This document shows positions 6,880 through 34,571 of a stretch of DNA of 41,457 nucleotides, one piece after another; position 1 is the stretch's first letter, and each line of letters opens with the position of its first letter. The notes below the pieces were generated by a model. It had not been told where the DNA came from. It saw only the letters and a list, made by a program, of their open reading frames with translations, and made no database searches. The DNA lies in the NCBI GenBank assembly GCA_023665425.1, contig JAMPDX010000011.1:1-41457 (forward strand), in the 5' to 3' direction. The position numbers and the translations under genes were made by a program. This DNA is from Muribaculaceae bacterium. GTDB lineage: Bacteria > Bacteroidota > Bacteroidia > Bacteroidales > Muribaculaceae.

Positions 6880-7057
6880 AATATTGGGGGGAAAGTTAAA
6901 TTTTAAGAAAAATCACAAAAAAATCGTAAAATCACAAAAAAAATTAATTTTTCTCAGCTACTCATTTATTTTTTAACCATCACTAAATTTAGGACGTAAA
7001 TCAATTTGAAATTCAAGTTTTGCAGGTAGTATACTATTGAATAGGTTATGGTTAGGA

Positions 7058-7168: not shown

Positions 7169-7210
7169 CTTGTTAATGTTATACACGATAACCTGCGAAA
7201 CTTGAATTAA

Positions 7211-7320
7211 GAGTCCACTCTAAAAAGTCAAAGATTGTGATGTAGAACTTCGCAACTTACTGATAATCAATATGTGATTTTGTTCTAAAACTGACAAGAT
7301 TGACTTTTTATAGTGGACTC
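7211..7320. mobile_element. 110-bp MITE-like element with 20-bp terminal inverted repeats
   Basis: GAGTCCACTCTAAAAAGTCA (7211-7230) is matched in inverted orientation by TGACTTTTTATAGTGGACTC (7301-7320), 19 of 20 positions. The 70-bp interior has no plausible gene. Termini of this kind are typical of insertion sequences, so this is either a non-autonomous miniature element or an IS remnant. I see no clear target-site duplication. It ends 27 bp past the terminase stop codon at 7348. Confidence 0.65.
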
Positions 7321-7347: not shown

Positions 7348-8268
7348 TCAGAAGAAGTCCCGGGGATCGAGGGGGATGGAGGCGCTGGCTTGGAAGGCCT
7401 CATCCGGGGTGGTAGGGTACTCAGCCATCATCTGCTCATGGGTGGCATATTCTTTCCGCTTCTGATGATACCAATTCACAGCCTCTATCGTAACCCCCGG
7501 GATGCTCAACAGGTTCAACTCATAGTCATCAAGCTGCTCCGTCAACGGCGACACAACCGGCTTGCGATATATCTCTATCTCATACCACGGCACAAATATA
7601 GGTGTCTTGTCTGACCGCCCGGATGTGGCTCGTTGCCACTCGTCATGAAAGAAATTGTCCTCCCCGTCGGCAGTTGACTCCATTACAATAAGTGTCTCCG
7701 GCTCCAGCGCAATTGATGCCGCTATGGAGCGCACTGTAGCCGCTGCCACTTCCGGGTCTCCATCACCCCAGAAAGCTACCTCACTCAGGTGCGCCATCTG
7801 ATAGTTGCCACTTCGTGCCGAATTTGCCGACAATGCCGATGCCACTGTGACACGGCAATCGCGTGCCGGGATATAATTGATATTGCGTGACCCCTCAAAG
7901 GGCTTGAAAGTGAAGTCTTTGGGATTTTCTCCCTTGAGATGCGCCGGGTATGCTCTAAGCAGCTGCGAATACATGCCGCGGATATTGGCCGACGCATCCT
8001 TAACGTGTCCGCAAATCAGGGAGTTCCAGCCCGTGTGCCTCACGAGTTGCATCCATGCCATATACATCTGCACCAGCGTACTGCCACCCCATTGGCGAGC
8101 CTTGAGTAGGATGATACGTATAGGCTGTCCGGCGCGACGCTGCCGCTCCATAGCCTCTGCCAAGCGCCTCTGCGGTGCGTTGAGTACAAAAGGCACCGGC
8201 GCTCCCGTGAGCTTATCGGTGATGGTGACACATTCGCGACACCACTGGCTAAAATTATCAATGTACAT
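7348..8268 (-). CDS. Phage terminase large subunit-like ATPase, nuclease domain absent
   Basis: A 306-aa protein with the features of a TerL packaging ATPase. An N-terminal 'NAPQRRLAEAM' adenine-side motif is followed by a deviant Walker A (K56-ARQWGGST-64, with lysine at the front as in many TerL proteins). Walker B is MAHLSEVAFW (159-167, Glu163), the coupling motif is ESTADG (197-202), and TTPDEAF (286-292) normally closes the ATPase domain. The protein ends 14 residues later, so the C-terminal RNase H-fold nuclease of ordinary TerL is missing, and nothing further downstream could encode it. Its start overlaps the end of the 659-aa gene by 11 bp. It is last in the cassette. Either it is a packaging motor without a cutter, or the 3' half was lost, perhaps with the inserted element at 7211-7320. 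Confidence 0.83.
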   Translation of the reverse strand: MYIDNFSQWCRECVTITDKLTGAPVPFVLNAPQRRLAEAMERQRRAGQPIRIILLKARQWGGSTLVQMYMAWMQLVRHTGWNSLICGHVKDASANIRGMYSQLLRAYPAHLKGENPKDFTFKPFEGSRNINYIPARDCRVTVASALSANSARSGNYQMAHLSEVAFWGDGDPEVAAATVRSIAASIALEPETLIVMESTADGEDNFFHDEWQRATSGRSDKTPIFVPWYEIEIYRKPVVSPLTEQLDDYELNLLSIPGVTIEAVNWYHQKRKEYATHEQMMAEYPTTPDEAFQASASIPLDPRDFF

Positions 8269-10237
8269 CTCGTTTCTTTTTAGGAGTAAGACTTATATCG
8301 GTGAGAGTCAGCACCTTGCCGCGCAATGTCACACTCAGCTCTGAGAGCCCCGGATAGAGAGTATTGCCGATGTGCGGCAGATAGAGCAAGGCGCGAAGGC
8401 CTGCAGTGCGAGGTGAGTCATAATGCCCCGACATCAAGCGCCTTCCCTCCGGGGTGCGGATATAAAAATCTATAGTGCCGTCGGTGCACATGGCAAATTC
8501 TATGTGCTGTTGCCAGGCCTCACTCATTATAGGTAGTGTAAACTGATAGTCCACATCACGGGTTATCATGCTCTCCTCGTCAAGGGAGTGAATGTAGTAA
8601 TATCCGTCGTTTGAGGATCGGTATGTCAAGGCCGGGGTCACTGCCCCCGCTATAGGCATGAAGGTATCATCGCGTACATATATAGACTTGTATCTCTGTT
8701 GCCACACAATCGAGTCGTCATCGCGAGCGAGCCACAGCTCTGCGTAAGCGCTGCTCCACAACAGTTGCTTCACCCCCTCAAGGTGCTGTATCTGCGTTGT
8801 GACCTTCGCATCCTTTATCAGCAGCAATGAGCGCGTGCTCCCCACGGCATACACACCACGTGGGGTGGAGAGCCATGTCTCTGTCAGGGTCAACGGCTCG
8901 GAGCTTATCAGCCTGGCATTGGTATGAGTGCCGTCAGACTTATGCGTTACGGCCACGATGCCACGGTCAGTGCTCACATATATGTATTGGCGGGTGAAAG
9001 CTCCACCCCCGGTGTGCTGAGCCCTCAAAGAGCGTATGCTGGTGCCAACACCGCGAGTCACGCATTTAAGTATCAATGGGTTACCTCTCTGTGATGTATA
9101 AAGGTCATCCCCACTTCCCGTGTGGAGAAATTCGCCGTGCCCCAAAATACAGGCCGCATCTGCCGAGGCCCCGGGCATTGGGGTGAGACTCTCCCTAACC
9201 TTGTCGTCAAACTTGGTGTCAGAGTCAAAGTTCACCACATGTGTGCCGGTATGGATGGGGCATACATTCACACAGCCAAAGGGCATATTCTCAATGTCCG
9301 CGGTAACATCGGCCTCCTGACGCATGGCCGGAACAAAGCTTATCACCGCCGCACTTGTCTGCATCACTGAGAAGGAGGTGGACGGCACAATGTCATGCTT
9401 CACAGGGTCCACCTCGCGTGTCACCCACACCTCAAAGCCGTCGATGAAGTCGGCCCACCGGTCAGGTATACCCTCCAGGATGTGCAGCTCGATGTTAAAG
9501 CCGGTGCTGGTGAGGGTTGACTCTTCCACGCCGGTATACATCTTCTTAGCCGCATCGTATGTCAAGTTGGCGGTAAATCGCGTGCGTCCCGGCTTATTGG
9601 GGAATGTGAGGCGCACCGGCTCTGAGACATGCAGCCGTGTGCCATCCCACAGACGCATGGCTATGCACACCTCCACATCTTCGCACCATAGGCCGGCGGC
9701 GTGTATTCGCTCTTGCAGGGTGACGAAGGCCTCTTGCCAAGCGTTCCACAAGCGGGAGGATGTGTCTGCTGACACCGGATTAACCGGTGTGGCGATAGAA
9801 GTGCCGAATTTCACGGCGCTGACAGGCACACTTAAGCTGGTGCCGTTATGGATGGTAAGTGAGAAGGCCGGCAGTGGGGGCAACGTGCCGAGCCAGCGGT
9901 ATTTATTCGCATCGGGGTGGCGGCTAAGGTAGAGCAATGTGTTGTTTTTTAGGCGGAAGATGATGAAGTCACCCACCGCAGCCCCCTCCTCTATGCTGCT
10001 CGCGATGCGCCCTATTTCGATATTATTGACGTAGATGGTGCCGTCATCTTCCTGGGTGAAGATATATTGTTTGGCATTCATTGTGTCGCAATATACAGGT
10101 TTTCGACCTATGGTGGAGAGCTGTGTAGGGGTGGCTACTCGACCCAATCTCTTATATGTCTCAGCGCGCAGATTGCGGCACACTTCTATATTTGAATCTT
10201 CTTTTATCGGTGTCATTTGTCTGTCATTATTAGACAT
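8258..10237 (-). CDS. Putative phage tail nozzle/stabilisation-like protein
   Basis: A 659-aa protein without signal peptide. The N-terminus (KRLGRVATPTQLSTIGRKPV, then IFTQEDDGTIYVNNIEIGRI) resembles the opening of podovirus tail hub/nozzle proteins of the P22 gp10 and T7 gp12 type. The C-terminal ~330 residues look like repeated beta-propeller blades (IYVSTDRGIVAVTH, RGVYAVGSTRSLLLI, ELWLARDDDSIVWQQ, DGYYYIHSLD). The gene overlaps the portal gene by 25 bp and the terminase gene by 11 bp, which supports translation as one unit. The assignment rests on position next to portal and connector genes plus general resemblance; I have no exact family. It could instead be a receptor-binding or unknown structural protein. 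Confidence 0.55.
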   Translation of the reverse strand: MSNNDRQMTPIKEDSNIEVCRNLRAETYKRLGRVATPTQLSTIGRKPVYCDTMNAKQYIFTQEDDGTIYVNNIEIGRIASSIEEGAAVGDFIIFRLKNNTLLYLSRHPDANKYRWLGTLPPLPAFSLTIHNGTSLSVPVSAVKFGTSIATPVNPVSADTSSRLWNAWQEAFVTLQERIHAAGLWCEDVEVCIAMRLWDGTRLHVSEPVRLTFPNKPGRTRFTANLTYDAAKKMYTGVEESTLTSTGFNIELHILEGIPDRWADFIDGFEVWVTREVDPVKHDIVPSTSFSVMQTSAAVISFVPAMRQEADVTADIENMPFGCVNVCPIHTGTHVVNFDSDTKFDDKVRESLTPMPGASADAACILGHGEFLHTGSGDDLYTSQRGNPLILKCVTRGVGTSIRSLRAQHTGGGAFTRQYIYVSTDRGIVAVTHKSDGTHTNARLISSEPLTLTETWLSTPRGVYAVGSTRSLLLIKDAKVTTQIQHLEGVKQLLWSSAYAELWLARDDDSIVWQQRYKSIYVRDDTFMPIAGAVTPALTYRSSNDGYYYIHSLDEESMITRDVDYQFTLPIMSEAWQQHIEFAMCTDGTIDFYIRTPEGRRLMSGHYDSPRTAGLRALLYLPHIGNTLYPGLSELSVTLRGKVLTLTDISLTPKKKRDVH

Positions 10238-11610
10238 ACTCTAAGATTTTCTCTTCGCAATATATGGCCGCGGAAGGTGGCCAGGATGTCAAGCATGCTT
10301 ATAAGGGCGTTCTCCAGCTCTGTGCGGAGCATATTTTCACCCTGTGCTGATGAGGATTTGCCGGACAAGGCTCCGGCAGCTCCGGAGATTTGCTCAAACA
10401 GTGAGAGCTGCATCTGCAGCATACGGGTGGCCTCGGCCCCGGATGTGCCCGAGGCGTTTACCTGCTGCGGCACCATACCTTTGGCGGTACGCTTGAAAGG
10501 GAGAATGCCGTTGGGATTGGCCCAGATGCGACGCACATCTTTCCATGTAAAACCCTCGGGTAGTTGATCAGCCGGATAGAGGAGCACTCCTTTGGCGGAG
10601 CTCGAGATGATATGGTCGAGCAGTGATATCAAGCGATTGATATATTTCTGATTATCAATTACATCCTCCACCAGAGAGTGCACCTCGCCGTCTATCAGCG
10701 GATAGAAACAGAGGGCGAAGGGTGGCCGCTTTCCTTCGGGTAGGGTCTCCACGGCAATCTTGTCTCCGGCGGGGGTGAGCCATATGCATTGCCACTGCTC
10801 ATGGGCCCGGTGGCGAATGGCGAGGGGCTCGGAGCCCACCTCTATGCGTGCCTTGTTGAGGCCGTGTAGGCGGGGCAGCGCGTCGATGGTGTCGGTGTAG
10901 CTGTGGCCCGTGGAGGGGTCGGTGATTTCAAGATTCTCGTATGCCACGAGGCGCCAGAGCTCTATGATGCGGTATGTGCCGGGCTTTGTGGGGGTGGAAA
11001 AGTCAATGGTGTCGGAGGTCACGGGCCATGTAGAGCCGGTCTGCAGGCCGCGGCGCAGGGCCTGCTTGAGGCCGGCAGCTTGTGAAGGGTCGCCGGTGCC
11101 GAACCGGCGGAAGACTTCAGCTATGCTCATGTCGTGTAGCATCCCCATCAAGCGGCAGTCTGAGCCATCCATACGGCTGAAAGGGTGGTGAAAGAAGTTG
11201 TCCGGGGAGACGTTGACATATTCTCCATCGGTGAAGCGCTGTATCACTCTCCCGCTGATCAGAAATTCTTCAAGGGCTCGGGCGTCGGTGTCTGTCACTG
11301 CCAGGTCGTTGTCGCCAAAGGATACTTCGGTGGGCTTGTCATCGTCAGAAGATATTTCCCATTCGTGTCCCTTTTCGCACATCCAGCGGTAACGCCCTAC
11401 AATAGACTTTACCATCTGGCGTATTATATTGTTGGTAATTGGCAGGCGTCCTTCCTCGACCATGCGCTGCTCCTCTGTGAGGAGGCGCCCGTCGGTGGAC
11501 CGGCATGAGTCGTTCCATTGACGACCGTAGGTGAAGGCTTTGAAGCGCGCCCGCTTACGGCGCTCTGATGCAAGGTTGAGCCATGCGTTCTGTGCTTGTT
11601 GTATCAGCAT
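10213..11610 (-). CDS. Phage portal-like protein
   Basis: A 465-aa soluble protein. The segment LPITNNIIRQMVKSIVGRYR (about residue 56 onward) is the characteristic portal 'N-x-I-x-x-x-V-x-x-I-x-G-x-x-R' region. NVSPDNFFHHPF and a 'G-M-L-H-D-M-S-I-A-E-V' stretch follow, as in P22-like portals. The central part has the 'VEDVIDNQKYINRLISLLDH' helix and the 'QISGAAGALSGKS' loop that lie around the portal wing and crown. At 465 aa it is shorter than P22 gp1 (725 aa), with a compact stretch between about residues 78 and 130. It starts 13 bp after the 174-aa gene and overlaps the 659-aa gene by 25 bp. It would form the ring through which DNA enters a capsid. Confidence 0.8.
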   Translation of the reverse strand: MLIQQAQNAWLNLASERRKRARFKAFTYGRQWNDSCRSTDGRLLTEEQRMVEEGRLPITNNIIRQMVKSIVGRYRWMCEKGHEWEISSDDDKPTEVSFGDNDLAVTDTDARALEEFLISGRVIQRFTDGEYVNVSPDNFFHHPFSRMDGSDCRLMGMLHDMSIAEVFRRFGTGDPSQAAGLKQALRRGLQTGSTWPVTSDTIDFSTPTKPGTYRIIELWRLVAYENLEITDPSTGHSYTDTIDALPRLHGLNKARIEVGSEPLAIRHRAHEQWQCIWLTPAGDKIAVETLPEGKRPPFALCFYPLIDGEVHSLVEDVIDNQKYINRLISLLDHIISSSAKGVLLYPADQLPEGFTWKDVRRIWANPNGILPFKRTAKGMVPQQVNASGTSGAEATRMLQMQLSLFEQISGAAGALSGKSSSAQGENMLRTELENALISMLDILATFRGHILRRENLRVCLIMTDK

Positions 11611-11623
11611 CTATAATATGAAT

Positions 11624-12148
11624 TTAGATTTCCGGATAATCGGCATCGTCAAACTGATATGTGCCATCCTCAGGGGCGGCGGTCATTATGAGATACTCAA
11701 GATTGGTGAGCGGGTTGGCGCTCGTGTGGGTGGCTATTCCATAGATATAGAGGATGTCACCGTCAAGCACTCCCACAGGGTCATCAGGGGTGCTCTGCAA
11801 CCAATAGTTTCTCTGGCGCAAGTGTGCCGGTGATCCGATAGAGTGAAAAGTGGTTATCGGAGCAGCCCATTCGGGAGCCTTGACAGACACGAGTCGCGCT
11901 CCCTCTTGCGGCAGGGTTATCATCATGCCGTTAGGTATGAGTCGCGCTCGCTCTATGCGCGTTCTGAGGTCACGTGTGGGAAGCCGCTCGGCCGGCGCAG
12001 TGAGCAGCAGATTGGCATACCATGACCGCAGACGCTGACGCAGCAACGCGTTGAAGTTGTTGTCGCTCTCATCGTTATAGGTAGCTGATATGCCATGTAT
12101 CTGCCGATAATGCGCTATTAGTGAACTTTCTGTATAACTTGTAAGCAT
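11624..12148 (-). CDS. Putative head-tail connector/adaptor protein
   Basis: A 174-aa protein starting MLTSYTESSLIAHY, with a helical N-terminal half (NNFNALLRQRLRSWYANLLL) and a beta-rich C-terminal half ending in acidic residues. Its size and its position between capsid and portal genes fit a head-completion adaptor such as P22 gp4 or a gp6-like protein, but I recognise no sequence motif that proves this. It starts 5 bp after the capsid gene stops. Confidence 0.5.
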   Translation of the reverse strand: MLTSYTESSLIAHYRQIHGISATYNDESDNNFNALLRQRLRSWYANLLLTAPAERLPTRDLRTRIERARLIPNGMMITLPQEGARLVSVKAPEWAAPITTFHSIGSPAHLRQRNYWLQSTPDDPVGVLDGDILYIYGIATHTSANPLTNLEYLIMTAAPEDGTYQFDDADYPEI

Positions 12149-12153
12149 TCTAC

Positions 12154-13377
12154 TTAGAGTTGACCGATAATGCGTGCGTGTGCTTCTGGATAGCGGAGGG
12201 TCAGACAGCTCGCTTCTGTCATGACTACAGCCTCGGTGTTGCGCTGACCGGACCCTCGCAGGTCAATTGTCTCGGCGTTAAAGGGTATGAAGACGTGCTT
12301 CTGGATATACTCCGGATCAATGATCATGCCGTTGGAGGGCATCCCCATGAGGTCGAAAATCTCAGAATATACCACATACAGTCGTCCGAATTTGCTCTGC
12401 AGCTCTGAGAAATCGATGCCCCAAGCGGTCACCTGGTCATGCGCGGTGATAACGTGAGTGTGTTCTATCTTGTTGATGGCGGCAATAAGGTCCTTACCGG
12501 CCATCAGCACCTTACGACGTGAGCCACAGTTGCCGGAGAAGGAGTCACGCAACATATCCACAAGTTTCTTGGAGTCGAAGTTGGTCAGGTCCACAAGGAT
12601 ATCCTTGGTCGCCTGGTTCCAGATACCACCTGTTGTGGTGACTGTCTCCGCTTTCTGGTAGTCATAAATCTTGCTCTTGATGCCGAACAAGAATTGCTTC
12701 TCCATGCCCATGCGCATATCATACACGGCGGCCTCTTGCTGGTCGTTGAAGTCCCAACCTATCTCCTTGTGAGAAAGCTTCATAACCACACTCTGCTCTA
12801 TTTGCATCTTGAAGATTTGGCAGTAGTTGGTGCTCTTGCTGGGCAGGGCGGCAAACTGGGGAGTCTGCACGTCAAGCTGGGTGGCGGCGCGACCCATGCG
12901 CACTATTGTAGCACCGGTCTTCAGTGACGTGGTGTCACCCTCCACCAGGGCCATCAGGTGGTTATCACTGGTTTTCTCAACGATGTAGCACATTGTCTCT
13001 CCGGGCTTCGAAAGTACTGTAAATGTGTCAGATACCTCAAAGCGGGAGGGGTGTTCTACACCTATTTTAAACACACTGCCGGTGGCTCCATCTACCCCGC
13101 GTTCGGCTTGGGCCAATGTTATCTTGTCGCGGTCCTCGCGGGTGTCCACGGAGTAATAATCCACCTCCATTGAGTCTACCGGGCGAGTGTTGCCCATACG
13201 GCTAATCTGGTCCAGCGGGGTGGCCATTGGGCGCACCTTGACGATTGCCGCATCGATGTCATTTGTCAGCAGAGAGGGCACCGCCTCGGATGCATTCTCT
13301 GTGGTGAGTGGAGTCCCGGTGATGTGTGTACCTCCATTCTGCCCTTCCACTACATTCTTGTTTGCTGTCTGTGCCAT
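12154..13377 (-). CDS. Phage major capsid-like protein (DUF5309/SU10-type HK97 fold)
   Basis: A 407-aa protein. A disordered, Gly/Thr-rich N-terminus is followed by 'AIVKVRPMATPLDQISRMG', typical of the E-loop region of HK97-fold coats of the SU10 type. An inserted beta domain lies around residues 95-160 (FKIGVEHPSRFEVSDTFTVL). The core has the spine helix 'QEAAVYDMRMGMEKQFLFGI', and a C-terminal axial domain with 'FGRLYVVYSEIFD' and 'NTEAVVMTEASCLTLRYPEA', as in DUF5309 coats. No signal peptide and no maturation protease gene are present nearby. It is first in the cassette, the position expected for the most abundant product. Encapsulin is less likely, since portal and terminase homologues follow. 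Confidence 0.75.
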   Translation of the reverse strand: MAQTANKNVVEGQNGGTHITGTPLTTENASEAVPSLLTNDIDAAIVKVRPMATPLDQISRMGNTRPVDSMEVDYYSVDTREDRDKITLAQAERGVDGATGSVFKIGVEHPSRFEVSDTFTVLSKPGETMCYIVEKTSDNHLMALVEGDTTSLKTGATIVRMGRAATQLDVQTPQFAALPSKSTNYCQIFKMQIEQSVVMKLSHKEIGWDFNDQQEAAVYDMRMGMEKQFLFGIKSKIYDYQKAETVTTTGGIWNQATKDILVDLTNFDSKKLVDMLRDSFSGNCGSRRKVLMAGKDLIAAINKIEHTHVITAHDQVTAWGIDFSELQSKFGRLYVVYSEIFDLMGMPSNGMIIDPEYIQKHVFIPFNAETIDLRGSGQRNTEAVVMTEASCLTLRYPEAHARIIGQL

Positions 13378-13669
13378 AATCTTTAATTTAATTAAAAAAC
13401 TTAAATTTTACTTATTGCCTACTCATGACGCTCCTCCCTATCTGCCGCACTGTGCCTCTTCAGCTGCCTGCCCTGCCACTGTGCCAAAGCAGTCCTGCCT
13501 GCCTGAGCTCTCAGCCCTGCTTCTGCCTTGCCTGGTTGTCCTGTCTCTCCGAAATACCCGTCATCTCCCCATGGTCCATTCCTACCATTCTTCCCACCCA
13601 TCCTTCCGACAGATAACCCATTCTTCTCAATCAAACGGCAGTTAGGTTGCCGCGCCACTTTCGACACTG

Positions 13670-16861: not shown

Positions 16862-17185
16862 TTAGCGGGAGAGCTGGATGAGTGAATCCTGTTTCTGCTC
16901 CAGGCGTCTGCGGGCTGTCTGTATCTCTTTTTGGCGCGATTTGAGCACGTCGCGGGCGCATCTGCTCTCATCATAAAAATTGAGAGTCTTGCGCAATTCT
17001 ATCTCTTTGTTTACCAGGACTTCTTGTTGCTTGAGCACATTAAGGTAGATGTCGATGGCTTTGTCTGTCTGGTCGTGTGTCCATTCCCCTTTTGTCTGGT
17101 CTAATGCTTCACGATTTTTTTCTGCATCGGGCTTGGAGCAGGCGCAGGCTAACATGATGAGCGTGGCTATTATAAGGTATCTCAT
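16862..17185 (-). CDS. Small coiled-coil lipoprotein
   Basis: A 107-aa protein with a lipoprotein signal (YLIIATLIMLACAC; the modified cysteine is residue 14 or 16). The mature part is highly charged and helical (VLKQQEVLVNKEIELRKTL, SRQKEIQTARRRLEQKQDS), suggesting a coiled coil in the periplasm. Family not recognised. Its start overlaps the glycosyltransferase stop by 4 bp, so it is probably translated from the same message. It ends convergently with the DUF4421 gene, 39 bp apart. Confidence 0.7.
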   Translation of the reverse strand: MRYLIIATLIMLACACSKPDAEKNREALDQTKGEWTHDQTDKAIDIYLNVLKQQEVLVNKEIELRKTLNFYDESRCARDVLKSRQKEIQTARRRLEQKQDSLIQLSR

Positions 17186-18444
17186 TTCAGCAGTGTATTG
17201 AATAAATTAATAAATTGGGTGGCGATATTTTCGGCGGCAAAGTGCTGTTTTACTGCGCCATACATACGTAGGGAGAGGGCCTGATGGTCGGTGTTGCGCA
17301 CCATGTCGGCAGCTTGCAGTATGGCTTCGGCAAAGTGTCCACGAGTGGCGAGCACTCCGAGTGTGGGGTCGGTGATGATGTCGCGCTGCCCTCCGCTGTC
17401 GAAGGCTACCGGCAGGGCACCATATAGCTGAGCCTCCACCAACGTGCCCGGTAGGGTCTCGTAGCTCGAGGGGGATACAAGGATGTGAGCACGTCGGTAG
17501 AAGGGCTCAATCTCGCTCACCCGCACTGCCGGATGCCATTCCACCTTCATCGTGGGGATACTCCGCAGGGCATCGAGGCGTGTTTCATCCTTCAAATTGC
17601 CCAACAAGCTGAGTGTCACATCTTTAATAAACTCGGGGTGAGTGCGTTGTAACTCCTTCAAGCTCTCTGTCAGGGTGTCAAGCCCCTTAATGGGGTCATC
17701 GAGGCGAGCGGCGGTCATGAGCATATATAGCCGACCATCATCAGGACGCTCAATATACTTGTACTCAGGTATTTGTATTGGGTTGTGAATAACCTCCACG
17801 CGCTCCTCGGCAAGCAGTGACGACTCCATACATCGGCCTCTGAGCCAATTGCTAACGGCCACAAAGGTGATTGGGGTGGCATAGAGTCTTGTATACAAGT
17901 GTTTCTTGCGCTTGTATGTGGCGTGAGAGAGGTCGTGTCTGCCGCGGGTTAGGCCATGAAGCAGAGGACAATTCCCACATTCGGACATAAACCTCTGGCA
18001 GAGACCCGGATGGTGGCAAATACCGGTGGCGCACCACAAGTCATGCATCACCCACACCACCGGTTTTTGCGCCGCGATACGCCCTATTTCCGCGAGTGAG
18101 AGCATCCCCTGATTAACCCACCCAAGCAGCACAATATCTGCCTGTTGCACCAGCGGGTGCCGGCTCAAGGACAGTCCGGCGGTGCCGGTATCCACCTTGA
18201 ATAGGTCTGCTCGGTTGAAGCCGTTACGCACGAATATATCCAGCCGCTCTGCCAGAAATGTCCTCTTTATCTTGCCGGGGGAAGCGGCGAGATATACATC
18301 CGGATCATCGGTAAGTCTCTCTGCCACAAGCATATCAGCATGTACACCCTGCTGTTGCAGGGCATGCATCAGGCGGCGCGAGACGACGGCGGCTCCTCCA
18401 CGGTCATCACTTTTATTGATGATGACAACCCTTAATGCGTTCAT
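17182..18444 (-). CDS. Family 4-type glycosyltransferase
   Basis: A 420-aa cytoplasmic protein of the GT-B fold. The N-terminal domain has the Gly-rich DDRGGAAVVSRRLMHAL loop, then VVWVMHDLWCATGICHHPG and CGNCP, a pattern common in GT4 enzymes of polysaccharide biosynthesis. The C-terminal nucleotide-sugar domain has LMTAARLDDPIKGLDTL and SPSSYETLPGTLVEAQLYG, with the usual E-x7-E spacing. The substrate cannot be told. It overlaps folA by 32 bp and the lipoprotein gene by 4 bp, an odd place for a polysaccharide enzyme, with no other polysaccharide genes adjacent. Confidence 0.85.
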   Translation of the reverse strand: MNALRVVIINKSDDRGGAAVVSRRLMHALQQQGVHADMLVAERLTDDPDVYLAASPGKIKRTFLAERLDIFVRNGFNRADLFKVDTGTAGLSLSRHPLVQQADIVLLGWVNQGMLSLAEIGRIAAQKPVVWVMHDLWCATGICHHPGLCQRFMSECGNCPLLHGLTRGRHDLSHATYKRKKHLYTRLYATPITFVAVSNWLRGRCMESSLLAEERVEVIHNPIQIPEYKYIERPDDGRLYMLMTAARLDDPIKGLDTLTESLKELQRTHPEFIKDVTLSLLGNLKDETRLDALRSIPTMKVEWHPAVRVSEIEPFYRRAHILVSPSSYETLPGTLVEAQLYGALPVAFDSGGQRDIITDPTLGVLATRGHFAEAILQAADMVRNTDHQALSLRMYGAVKQHFAAENIATQFINLFNTLLK

Positions 18445-18919
18445 AAGTGGCGAAACGGTATGTAAGGCCCGAAGATGCGTCGGTCGTTTCCTCCGTGCTC
18501 TCAGTCAGACGGAACTGCTCGCTGTCTATCTCGGGGAAATAGGTGTCAGCATCCGGAAATTCACCCTCTATGAGGGTCAGATACAGGTGGTCTGCATGGG
18601 GCAATGTAGCAGCATATATATGCCCTCCACCTATGATAAACGGGTCAGAGTCAGCCTTCTGAGCCACAGCTATAGCCTCCTCGATACTTGTGCAAAGGGT
18701 GGCACCGGGCGTCGGATAGTCGGGGTTATGACTTATGACAATGTTCAGACGCCCCGGTAGTGCCCCTTTGGGGAGTGACTCCCACGTCTTACGCCCCATG
18801 ATGACAGGGTGCCCCATGGTCAGCGCCTTAAAATGCTTCAGATCTTCCCGCAGATGCCATATCAGGTCTCCTCCGCGTCCTATGGCCCGGTCTGAGCCCA
18901 TTGCTACTATAATGTTCAT
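18413..18919 (-). CDS. folA: Dihydrofolate reductase
   Basis: Reduces dihydrofolate to tetrahydrofolate with NADPH, restoring the cofactor oxidised by thymidylate synthase next door. I start it at the ATG at 18919 (MNIIVAMGSDRAIGRGGDL), which matches the family N-terminus and gives 168 aa; the frame is open further up to 18973, but that would overlap thyA. Motifs: WHLREDLKHFK (substrate-binding acidic residue), GRKTWESLPKG, LPGRLNIVIS and FIIGGGHIYAATL (NADPH-binding). The usual L-P-W reads L-I-W, so the proline is replaced. It follows thyA by 20 bp and overlaps the glycosyltransferase start by 32 bp. Confidence 0.95.
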   Translation of the reverse strand: MNIIVAMGSDRAIGRGGDLIWHLREDLKHFKALTMGHPVIMGRKTWESLPKGALPGRLNIVISHNPDYPTPGATLCTSIEEAIAVAQKADSDPFIIGGGHIYAATLPHADHLYLTLIEGEFPDADTYFPEIDSEQFRLTESTEETTDASSGLTYRFATYERIKGCHHQ

Positions 18920-18939
18920 TATAAATGCGTTAATGTAAA

Positions 18940-19734
18940 TTATACCGACACCTGCCCCTTGATGGCGGGCCATGGGTCATACCCCTCGAGGTGGAAGTCT
19001 TCGTATTTGAAGTCGAAGATGCTCTTGACTTCCGGATTAAGTATCATGCGAGGCAGCGGCCGCGGCTCGCGCGACAGTTGCTCATGCACCTGCTCCAGAT
19101 GATTGAGATAAATGTGCACGTCTCCAAAGGTATGGATGAATTCACCCGGCTCCAGACCGCACACCTGCGCCACCATCATTGTGAGCAGTGCGTAAGATGC
19201 GATGTTGAACGGGACTCCAAGGAAGGAGTCTGCACTGCGCTGATAGAGCTGCAGGGAGAGCTTGCCCTCGTTGACATAAAACTGGAAGAAAGCATGGCAT
19301 GGGGGCAGGTTCATATTGTCGAGGTCGGCCACGTTCCATGCGCTGACTATTATGCGGCGCGAGTCCGGGTTATGCTTGATGTCGTCTATGGCGCGGCTTA
19401 TCTGGTCTACGAAGCCCCCCTGATAATCGGGCCATGACCTCCATTGGTAGCCGTAGATATGCCCTAATGAGCCATCCGGGTCTGCCCACTCGTTCCATAT
19501 ACGCACTCCATTGTCTTGCAGATACTTGACGTTTGTATCCCCGGCGAGAAACCATAGCAACTCATGTATCACACTCTTCAGGTGCACCTTCTTGGTGGTG
19601 AGCAGCGGGAACCCTCGGCTCAGGTCGAAGCGCATCTGATAGCCAAAAGTTGAAATGGTGCCGGTGCCGGTGCGGTCACCCTTCTTGTGGCCAACGGCGA
19701 GGATATGTCTTAGCAGGTCTTGATATTCTTTCAT
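18940..19734 (-). CDS. thyA: Thymidylate synthase
   Basis: A 264-aa enzyme, the same length as the E. coli protein, converting dUMP to dTMP with methylene-tetrahydrofolate. Visible landmarks are RTGTGT (21-26), the catalytic [12 protein letters not shown] with Cys146, [20 protein letters not shown] for phosphate and folate binding, and the [12 protein letters not shown] dUMP-binding segment. It lies 24 bp after the membrane ferredoxin and 20 bp before folA, forming the classic thyA-folA pair. Confidence 0.98.

Positions 19735-33491: not shown

Positions 33492-34571
<1,080 letters not shown>

What the first reader, a model, noticed from the sequence alone, without database searches (positions are those of the whole stretch)
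7348..13377. Compact capsid-connector-portal-nozzle-terminase cassette without the rest of a phage
Five adjacent minus-strand genes look like virion head and DNA-packaging parts, all open and tightly packed (gaps of 5 and 13 bp, overlaps of 25 and 11 bp). No integrase, repressor, small terminase, scaffold, protease, tail fibre or lysis gene is visible on either side; mltG and the T9SS plug gene flank it. By eye the base composition resembles the neighbours. Intact reading frames in a stripped set suggest it is kept for a use, for example a gene-transfer-agent-like or other domesticated particle, rather than being a decaying prophage. To my knowledge no such agent has been described in Bacteroidales, but I cannot search for one.
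Basis: partly seen in the sequence, partly recalled or inferred. Interest (0 to 1): 0.85.

Follow-up and report, generated by a model that had tools for sequence, protein, structure and literature searches.

The report
Domesticated phage head genes in Bacteroidales
Five neighbouring genes in this bacterium are phage parts (shell, likely connector, portal, likely tail nozzle and DNA-packing motor), and relatives of the shell gene sit, nearly always once, in most sampled genomes of its family, so they are likely a tamed virus particle, predicted to pack and move bacterial DNA, although in this genus the motor has lost its DNA-cutting half.

Summary
In detail: five intact, tightly packed minus-strand genes (7348-13377) encode an SU10-type capsid protein, a likely head-tail adaptor, a P22-type portal, a podovirus-like nozzle and a terminase ATPase, without the rest of a phage. 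Of 148 genomes of the window's family, 131 carry the capsid gene at E<1e-125; terminase and portal profiles match 136 and 140 (some of these are prophage copies). Capsid-positive genomes of six further Bacteroidales families also match the portal (26 of 27) and terminase (27 of 27). The genes are often split or scattered singly among host genes. Chromosomal capsids form one clade apart from 78 phage-type sequences and follow host genus and family; dN/dS of close capsid pairs is 0.03-0.17. A single-contig genome of the Coprobacter-titled family keeps a holin and an endolysin beside the capsid genes. Best reading: an ancient, vertically inherited, gene-transfer-agent-like element; seven library searches (some listings capped) showed no report of one. 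The window's genus is a reduced branch: the terminase nuclease is degenerate or missing in 7 of 7 carriers (kept in 27 of 27 examined outside), and 7 of 41 genus genomes carry the capsid gene. Particles, packaged DNA and transfer are untested.

The parts
12154..13377 (-). major capsid protein, SU10_MCP (HK97-fold) family, 407 aa, no N-terminal hydrophobic segment
   Evidence: PF17236 E 2.2e-50; profile A1 finds it across the family; N-terminus
11624..12148 (-). likely head-tail adaptor (connector / ring protein), 174 aa
   Evidence: position between MCP and portal in relatives; model pLDDT 91 matches phicrAss001 7qoj_D E 7e-4 and SU10 7z47_A E 0.03
10213..11610 (-). portal protein, P22-like, 465 aa (short form)
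   Evidence: PF16510 E 4.7e-18, phrog_156 E 2.7e-32; portal profile A2 matches 140 of 148 family genomes, prophage copies included
8258..10237 (-). likely podovirus-type tail nozzle, 659 aa, fast evolving
   Evidence: model pLDDT 84; Foldseek to nozzles of E1004, HRP29, PhiM1, T7, P22; profile A3 in 105 of 148, A7 in 38 of 42
7348..8268 (-). terminase large subunit reduced to its ATPase domain, 306 aa; C-terminal nuclease domain absent
   Evidence: phrog_2 E 1.8e-15; ATPase motifs kept, nuclease missing; no separate nuclease piece found in the own genome at E<=1
17182..19734 (-). host marker genes (glycosyltransferase, DHFR, thymidylate synthase) that also lie beside the cassette in genome G018
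   Evidence: Pfam; blastp to L074, 47, 51 and 82% identity, same order

Best explanation
These five genes are the compact, nuclease-less form of a podovirus-type head-and-packaging gene set whose capsid gene is carried, nearly always once, by most sampled genomes of the window's family and by genomes of six further Bacteroidales families, and which likely works as a domesticated, gene-transfer-agent-like particle predicted to package chromosomal DNA. Shown by sequence: capsid, portal and terminase identities, the wide presence, purifying selection, host-congruent descent, and dispersal among host genes. Inferred from models: adaptor and nozzle. Inferred mechanism: capsid proteins assemble on the portal (with the scaffold-like protein that many relatives have upstream of the capsid gene), the terminase ATPase pumps DNA in, adaptor and nozzle close the head and form a short stub tail for delivery, and lysis genes (found in one relative) release the particle. 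Inferred for the window's genus: the motor still pumps but cannot cut, so it would use ends made by another nuclease, or the set is a reduced stage on the way to loss or to another use.
For: (1) Spread: the MCP profile matches 137 of 148 family genomes, 131 at E<1e-125; 122 of the 137 show one match only. Terminase 136 of 148, portal 140 of 148, nozzle 105 of 148. Order: 36 of 393, of which 33 at E<1e-160 in seven families; class: 4 of 386. In the 27 MCP-positive genomes of the other six families: portal 26, terminase 27, nozzle 26. (2) Descent: in the MCP tree, rooted on the phage-like L076, all 104 chromosomal rows plus five contigs of the viral collection form one clade (SH-aLRT 99 as printed after rerooting) apart from 78 other phage-type rows. 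Host labels need 34 changes for 34 labels (MCP) and 32 for 33 (TerL); the minimum is 33 and 32. Nearest neighbour has the same label in 92 of 95 and 73 of 77 rows; MCP and TerL distances correlate over 86 genomes (Mantel r 0.57, none of 999 permutations as high). (3) Selection: dN/dS 0.034-0.17 in 10 of 11 MCP pairs and 0.020-0.128 in 17 of 21 TerL pairs, the rest saturated; the MCP pairs were chosen by me as close relatives. (4) Dispersal: single-contig genome G449 has capsid cluster, portal, nozzle and terminase at 1.395, 1.149, 1.132 and 1.428 Mb, between host-type genes. (5) Same place in the window and G018. (6) Terminase nuclease motifs present in 27 of 27 chromosomal TerLs examined outside the genus, by pattern. 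(7) Holin PF05105 E 9.8e-8 and endolysin phrog_894 E 2.5e-23 beside the capsid genes of G417. (8) After nuclease loss, window and L016 TerL still share 78% identity at synonymous saturation (pN 0.16, pS 0.79).
Against: No particle, packaged DNA or transfer is shown. In the window's genus only 7 of 41 genomes carry the capsid gene (30 of the 34 negatives rest on the single-sequence search, and some genomes are incomplete), and 0 of 7 carriers keep the terminase nuclease. No scaffold-like or small-terminase-like gene is seen beside the window cassette. G086, G107 and G192 match none of capsid, terminase and portal. A few chromosomal capsid genes are broken or split (for example G170, G173, and one stop each in G094, G113, G183). 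Related prophage-like copies exist beside it (G306 and G398 second copies), and some terminase and portal matches are such copies (for example G007, G009, G090, G152). Contig L175 of the viral collection, 91% identical in capsid to G482, has a contiguous phage-like cluster with a lysozyme-like gene, so not every copy in that branch is clearly domesticated. The trees are quick ones with long-branch warnings.
Confidence: 0.65

Rival explanations
1. Decaying prophage remnant: a temperate phage integrated, most genes were deleted, and five happen still to be open.
For: No integrase, repressor, replication or tail-fibre gene beside it; terminase shortened; sporadic in the genus.
Against: Family-wide capsid gene, dN/dS well below 1 in relatives, host-congruent trees for two separate loci, shared chromosomal place with G018, and five open frames in both window and L016 although synonymous sites are near or at saturation.
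Confidence: 0.09
2. Capsid-forming phage satellite (cf-PICI type): its own head and packaging genes, tail borrowed from a helper phage.
For: Head and packaging genes without a long tail; prophage-like regions with related genes live in the same genomes (L121 in the own genome; G306).
Against: It has its own nozzle; no integrase among the Pfam-scanned window genes; an integrase similar to that of L046 lies in 2 of 55 chromosomal loci (one query, limited sensitivity); genes are scattered over hundreds of kilobases in G449 and follow the host.
Confidence: 0.05
3. Domesticated capsid put to another use in this genus, for example a DNA-holding or phage-interfering shell; the terminase ATPase is kept without its nuclease.
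For: Nuclease degenerate in three and missing in four of seven genus carriers while the ATPase stays constrained; no small-terminase-like ORF in the window and no scaffold-like ORF directly upstream of the capsid gene in the window or L016.
Against: Portal, adaptor and nozzle are kept in the window, which a closed shell would not need; no cargo or effector gene is linked. A scaffold-like ORF is present in other genus carriers (for example G165).
Confidence: 0.17
4. A still mobile or recently mobile phage lineage whose genes are often misassembled or split.
For: Contiguous clusters exist (g47 genome G082, viral-collection contigs L171-L173, L175); phages with 34-38% identical capsids are common in viral contigs.
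Against: Single-contig genomes show real separation (G449, G417, G145); flanks are host-type genes; sequences follow the host.
Confidence: 0.04

Closest known systems
Gene transfer agents (RcGTA of Rhodobacter recalled; Ruminococcaceae and Oscillospiraceae in PMC12946183, abstract and passages seen)
   Same: phage-derived head and packaging genes inherited with the chromosome under purifying selection, no replication or integration genes in the maps read, parts at more than one locus, lysis genes in one relative
   Different: other phylum; built from SU10/P22/T7-type podovirus-like parts; genes can lie singly; the window's genus lacks the terminase nuclease; no particle shown
Bacteroides phages BS-TP4, BF1-TP2, BKO1-TP3 and related viral contigs
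   Same: same capsid family; BS-TP4 and BF1-TP2 also have portal and terminase relatives
   Different: 36-38% capsid identity; 64-68 kb phage genomes; BS-TP4 and BF1-TP2 lie outside the chromosomal clade (BKO1-TP3 was not put in the tree)
Podovirus neck and tail of SU10, P22, T7 and crAss001
   Same: capsid family (SU10), portal family (P22), nozzle fold (T7, P22 gp10), adaptor fold (crAss001, SU10)
   Different: those are complete viruses; fold matches have about 7-14% sequence identity
Capsid-forming PICIs (recalled, not searched)
   Same: head and packaging genes
   Different: satellites have integrase, regulators and attachment sites (recalled); none identified here

Membership tests
Gene transfer agent | phage-derived structural genes inherited vertically under purifying selection | tested here: met
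   (for the family; within the window's genus presence is sporadic)
Gene transfer agent | no replication or integration module beside the structural genes | tested here: inconclusive
   none identified in the window genes scanned; most relatives were read only as ORF maps; an integrase lies near 2 of 55 loci
Gene transfer agent | complete packaging motor with nuclease | tested here: not met
   window and its genus 0 of 7; met by motif in 27 of 27 chromosomal TerLs examined outside the genus
Gene transfer agent | particles that carry random host DNA and deliver it | not testable with these tools
   needs particle purification and sequencing
Gene transfer agent | lysis genes for release | tested here: inconclusive
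   holin and endolysin beside the capsid genes in G417; none beside the window cassette
Temperate prophage | integrase, repressor and replication genes in one block with the virion genes | tested here: not met
   window genes from 808 to 24013 scanned with Pfam: host-type genes flank the cassette
Capsid-forming satellite (cf-PICI) | integrase | tested here: not met
   none among the window genes scanned
Capsid-forming satellite (cf-PICI) | attachment repeats around the element | tested here: inconclusive
   one AT-rich 14-nt pair, 93% identical, brackets the cassette (6892-6905 and 13397-13410); such short pairs are often chance
Encapsulin | HK97-fold shell with cargo gene and no portal or terminase | tested here: not met
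   portal, nozzle and terminase are linked to the shell gene
SU10_MCP capsid family | match above the Pfam cut-off over the domain | tested here: met
   172.3 bits against a cut-off of 24.1, residues 25-405, profile 10-290 of 292

The most novel reading that the evidence does not exclude
Seven families of Bacteroidales, by record titles among them Muribaculaceae, Barnesiella and Coprobacter, carry an inherited gene transfer agent, the first in their phylum, whose capsid, portal, nozzle and packaging-motor genes have been scattered through the chromosome like ordinary core genes; in the window's genus it has evolved a motor that pumps DNA without cutting it.
Probability: 0.5. Interest if true: 0.95.

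Novelty: new variant of a known kind. Interest (0 to 1): 0.87.

Why it matters
Bacteroidales are major gut bacteria with high rates of gene exchange. A near-core, vertically inherited capsid and packaging set would add a gene-transfer route that prophage finders would easily miss, because its genes often lie apart and are named, where a name is given, as 'DUF5309' proteins. It gives a direct test in cultured strains, and the genus with a nuclease-less terminase is a natural experiment on which parts such a particle needs.

Tried and rejected
A pattern-based integrase scan was dropped: it missed a real integrase in L046 and found 0 in 36 viral controls; a phmmer search with that integrase replaced it. 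The weak MCP matches (E 1.6e-5 to 4.9e-4 in seven same-genus genomes: G008, G011, G016, G022, G023, G025, G032) are not counted as the element; gene maps of three of them (G008, G016, G032) show a second, prophage-like element type, and portal and terminase relatives were seen in others by tblastn. In one search I left out of the 131: G007, G090, G152 (E 1e-11 to 1e-13), G169 and G180 (E about 1e-113, like the second prophage-type copies of G088, G113, G122), and G170 (split into two pieces). dN/dS of window against L016 is not usable for MCP, adaptor and TerL because synonymous sites are saturated. For 61 of the 87 chromosomal terminases in the tree only the ATPase stretch or no nuclease judgement is available; the 27 and the 7 are those with the full gene or full model range; among nine phage-type controls the motif pattern passed eight (L076 missed one motif). 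Per-family hit rates at order level cannot be given, since one search lists only part of the misses. Literature: searches showed no Bacteroidota gene transfer agent; some searches listed only 25 of 74, 10 of 507 and 15 of 71 papers, and preprints and most subscription papers are not held. Only PMC12946183 was opened (abstract and passages); the rest were seen as listings. Not tried: structure prediction of MCP or portal, expression data.
Full report
OBSERVATION. Sequence families identify an SU10-type major capsid protein, a P22-type portal and a terminase large subunit. Models suggest the other two: the 659-aa protein is likely a podovirus nozzle (pLDDT 84; the ten best PDB matches are podovirus tail or nozzle chains, E 4e-11 to 3.5e-7, TM about 0.4, followed by unrelated propellers), and the 174-aa protein, with weaker support, a head-tail adaptor like those of phicrAss001 and SU10 (pLDDT 91; E 7e-4 and 0.03). 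NCBIfam names none of the five above its cut-off. The window genes around the cassette are host-type: T9SS plug and MltG, glycosyltransferase, DHFR, thymidylate synthase and Na/Pi cotransporter.

HOW WIDESPREAD. A single-sequence search found strong capsid relatives in 5 of 37 genomes of the genus and relatives in two other families. A profile of 31 capsid sequences changed the picture: 137 of 148 genomes of the family match, 131 at E<1e-125, and 122 of the 137 show a single match. In the same 148 genomes the terminase profile matches 136, the portal profile 140 and the nozzle profile 105. These include prophage copies in some genomes, so the capsid count is the cleanest. In the order, 36 of 393 genomes match; 33 of these, all at E<1e-160, fall in seven families (the window's f1 with 6, f22 5, f28 5, f60 4, f67 5, f86 3, f105 5), and three are phage-like. 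In the class 4 of 386 match, one of them weakly. The 27 capsid-positive genomes of the six other families match the portal in 26, the terminase in 27 and the nozzle in 26. Titles of records identical in DNA (titles) name Barnesiella for members of f22 and f105 and Coprobacter for one of f60; f1 titles are mixed (Muribaculaceae, Prevotellaceae, Porphyromonadaceae), so the name Muribaculaceae is my inference. A protein-level search returned 2384 relatives at E<=1e-20, of which 120 are listed; the few source names read DUF5309 or hypothetical protein.

ARRANGEMENT. Gene maps show several states. In the window and L016 the order is capsid-adaptor-portal-nozzle-terminase in one block. In G082 (L389) a nozzle-terminase pair and a scaffold-like, capsid, adaptor, portal and small-protein run form one block of about 10 kb. 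Elsewhere the capsid run and the terminase lie apart, for example in G116 (capsid C1:182,114, terminase C1:2,731,451, with a nozzle beside the terminase). Of 25 family genomes with both on one contig, 14 have them within 20 kb and 11 further apart, up to 2.5 Mb (my reading); the others have them on different contigs. In single-contig genome G449 the capsid cluster, portal, nozzle and terminase lie at 1.395, 1.149, 1.132 and 1.428 Mb, each between host-type genes. Single-contig genome G417 has a holin (PF05105, E 9.8e-8) and an endolysin (phrog_894, E 2.5e-23) downstream of its capsid cluster and three genes of possibly virion type beside its terminase. A protein of about 130-170 aa that lies upstream of the terminase in phage-type loci is also found in several chromosomal clusters (alignment and search, 85 hits counted); I propose it as the small terminase, untested. 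No window ORF matched it.

DESCENT AND SELECTION. In a tree of 187 capsid proteins, rooted on L076, the 104 chromosomal rows and five contigs from the viral collection form one clade (SH-aLRT 99 as printed) apart from 78 other phage-type rows (75 viral contigs, two named phages and the phage-like copy of G055). Of the five, L171-L173 are pieces of a g47-type cluster, L174 is a 10-kb contig that reads as a mirror image of itself, and L175 is discussed under caveats. Host labels need 34 changes for 34 labels in the capsid tree and 32 for 33 in the terminase tree, one above and exactly at the minimum. Nearest neighbours share the label in 92 of 95 and 73 of 77 rows; capsid and terminase distances correlate over 86 genomes, r 0.57, with none of 999 permutations as high. 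dN/dS is 0.034-0.17 for 10 of 11 capsid pairs and 0.020-0.128 for 17 of 21 terminase pairs, all outside the window's genus; the others are saturated. In genome G018 (capsid 69% identical) the block nozzle-portal-adaptor-capsid is followed by the same glycosyltransferase, DHFR, thymidylate synthase, ferredoxin-type and Na/Pi cotransporter genes as in the window, where MltG and a DUF4421 gene lie between: a shared place.

THE WINDOW'S GENUS IS SPECIAL. The terminases of other genera and families keep the nuclease motifs in 27 of 27 cases examined; in the window's genus 0 of 7 do. Three (G004, G029, G033; 491-498 aa) have a degenerate C-terminal domain, four (G000, G139 = L016, G018, G165; 306-369 aa) are shortened. 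No separate nuclease piece was found in the own genome. The Walker A-type pattern is present in 87 of 87 chromosomal terminases, and both ATPase patterns in 78 of 87. Window and L016 share the truncated form and still have 78% identical terminases although synonymous sites are saturated (pS 0.79, pN 0.16), so the ATPase alone has likely stayed under selection. Yet only 7 of 41 genus genomes seen have the capsid gene. I read this as a reduced branch of the element: a motor that depends on another cutter, a changed use, or a stage before loss.

MECHANISM. Shown: identities of capsid, portal and terminase, co-occurrence, descent, constraint. Inferred from the known roles of these families: capsid assembles around the portal, the terminase pumps DNA, adaptor and nozzle form a short tail. 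Inferred from vertical inheritance without a replication or integration module in the maps: the packaged DNA is chromosomal, that is, a gene-transfer-agent-like role. Not shown: particles, DNA, release, uptake.

KNOWN OR NEW. Seven library searches (listings capped) gave no gene transfer agent of Bacteroidota. PMC12946183 (abstract and passages) reports GTA-like packaging in Ruminococcaceae and Oscillospiraceae, and for Bacteroides lateral transduction by a prophage. Membership in the GTA class is not claimed for the window: the nuclease feature is not met there and particles are untested. It would be a new variant of a known kind.

CAVEATS. Most genomes are draft assemblies; separation was therefore argued from single or long contigs. 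Trees are quick ones with long-branch warnings. Per-family rates at order level are unknown. Related phages exist, and contig L175 shows a capsid 91% identical to that of G482 inside a contiguous phage-like cluster with a lysozyme-like gene, so in the Coprobacter branch the line between prophage and domesticated element is not yet clear.

Noticed in passing
L024-L067 capsid genes, L072, L073, L076: 33 of 59 capsid proteins scored start with a hydrophobic, membrane-anchor-like (some lipobox-like) segment; phages BS-TP4 and BF1-TP2 have a gene annotated as rhomboid protease two genes from the capsid gene. This suggests membrane-tethered capsid assembly released by proteolysis. The window's capsid lacks the segment.
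   Followed up: partly
L077-L079 (G008, G016, G032); probably L080-L083: A second compact element type in the same genus: regulator-like protein of about 215 aa, scaffold-like, capsid about 510-527 aa, small proteins of about 160 aa, and in L078/L079 a terminase of 677-692 aa, with a portal in L079.
   Followed up: partly
L121 1-12375 (own genome, contig C11): A separate prophage-like region in the window's genome with a 967-aa nozzle-like protein (second hit) and, by eye, a helicase-like gene; a possible helper.
   Followed up: partly
L381 2309-2716, L389 4619-5059, L175 5047-5469 and others: A family of about 130-170 aa upstream of the terminase in phage-type loci and present in several chromosomal clusters; candidate small terminase.
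   Followed up: partly
window 7211-7231 / 7300-7320 and 7010-7027 / 7191-7208: Two inverted repeats just downstream of the shortened terminase gene, possibly a small mobile-element scar.
   Followed up: no
L122 7467-9888 (G145): Two genes that look by eye like an IS21-type transposase and helper lie between the capsid and adaptor genes, splitting the cluster.
   Followed up: no
L392, L393, window 33492-34499: A gene 89-94% identical to the window's 335-aa protein at 33492-34499 lies near the lone terminase gene in G018 and G165; in the window it is about 25 kb from the terminase.
   Followed up: partly
L025, L046: An integrase gene starts about 1.3-1.6 kb downstream of the capsid gene start in 2 of 55 loci.
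   Followed up: partly
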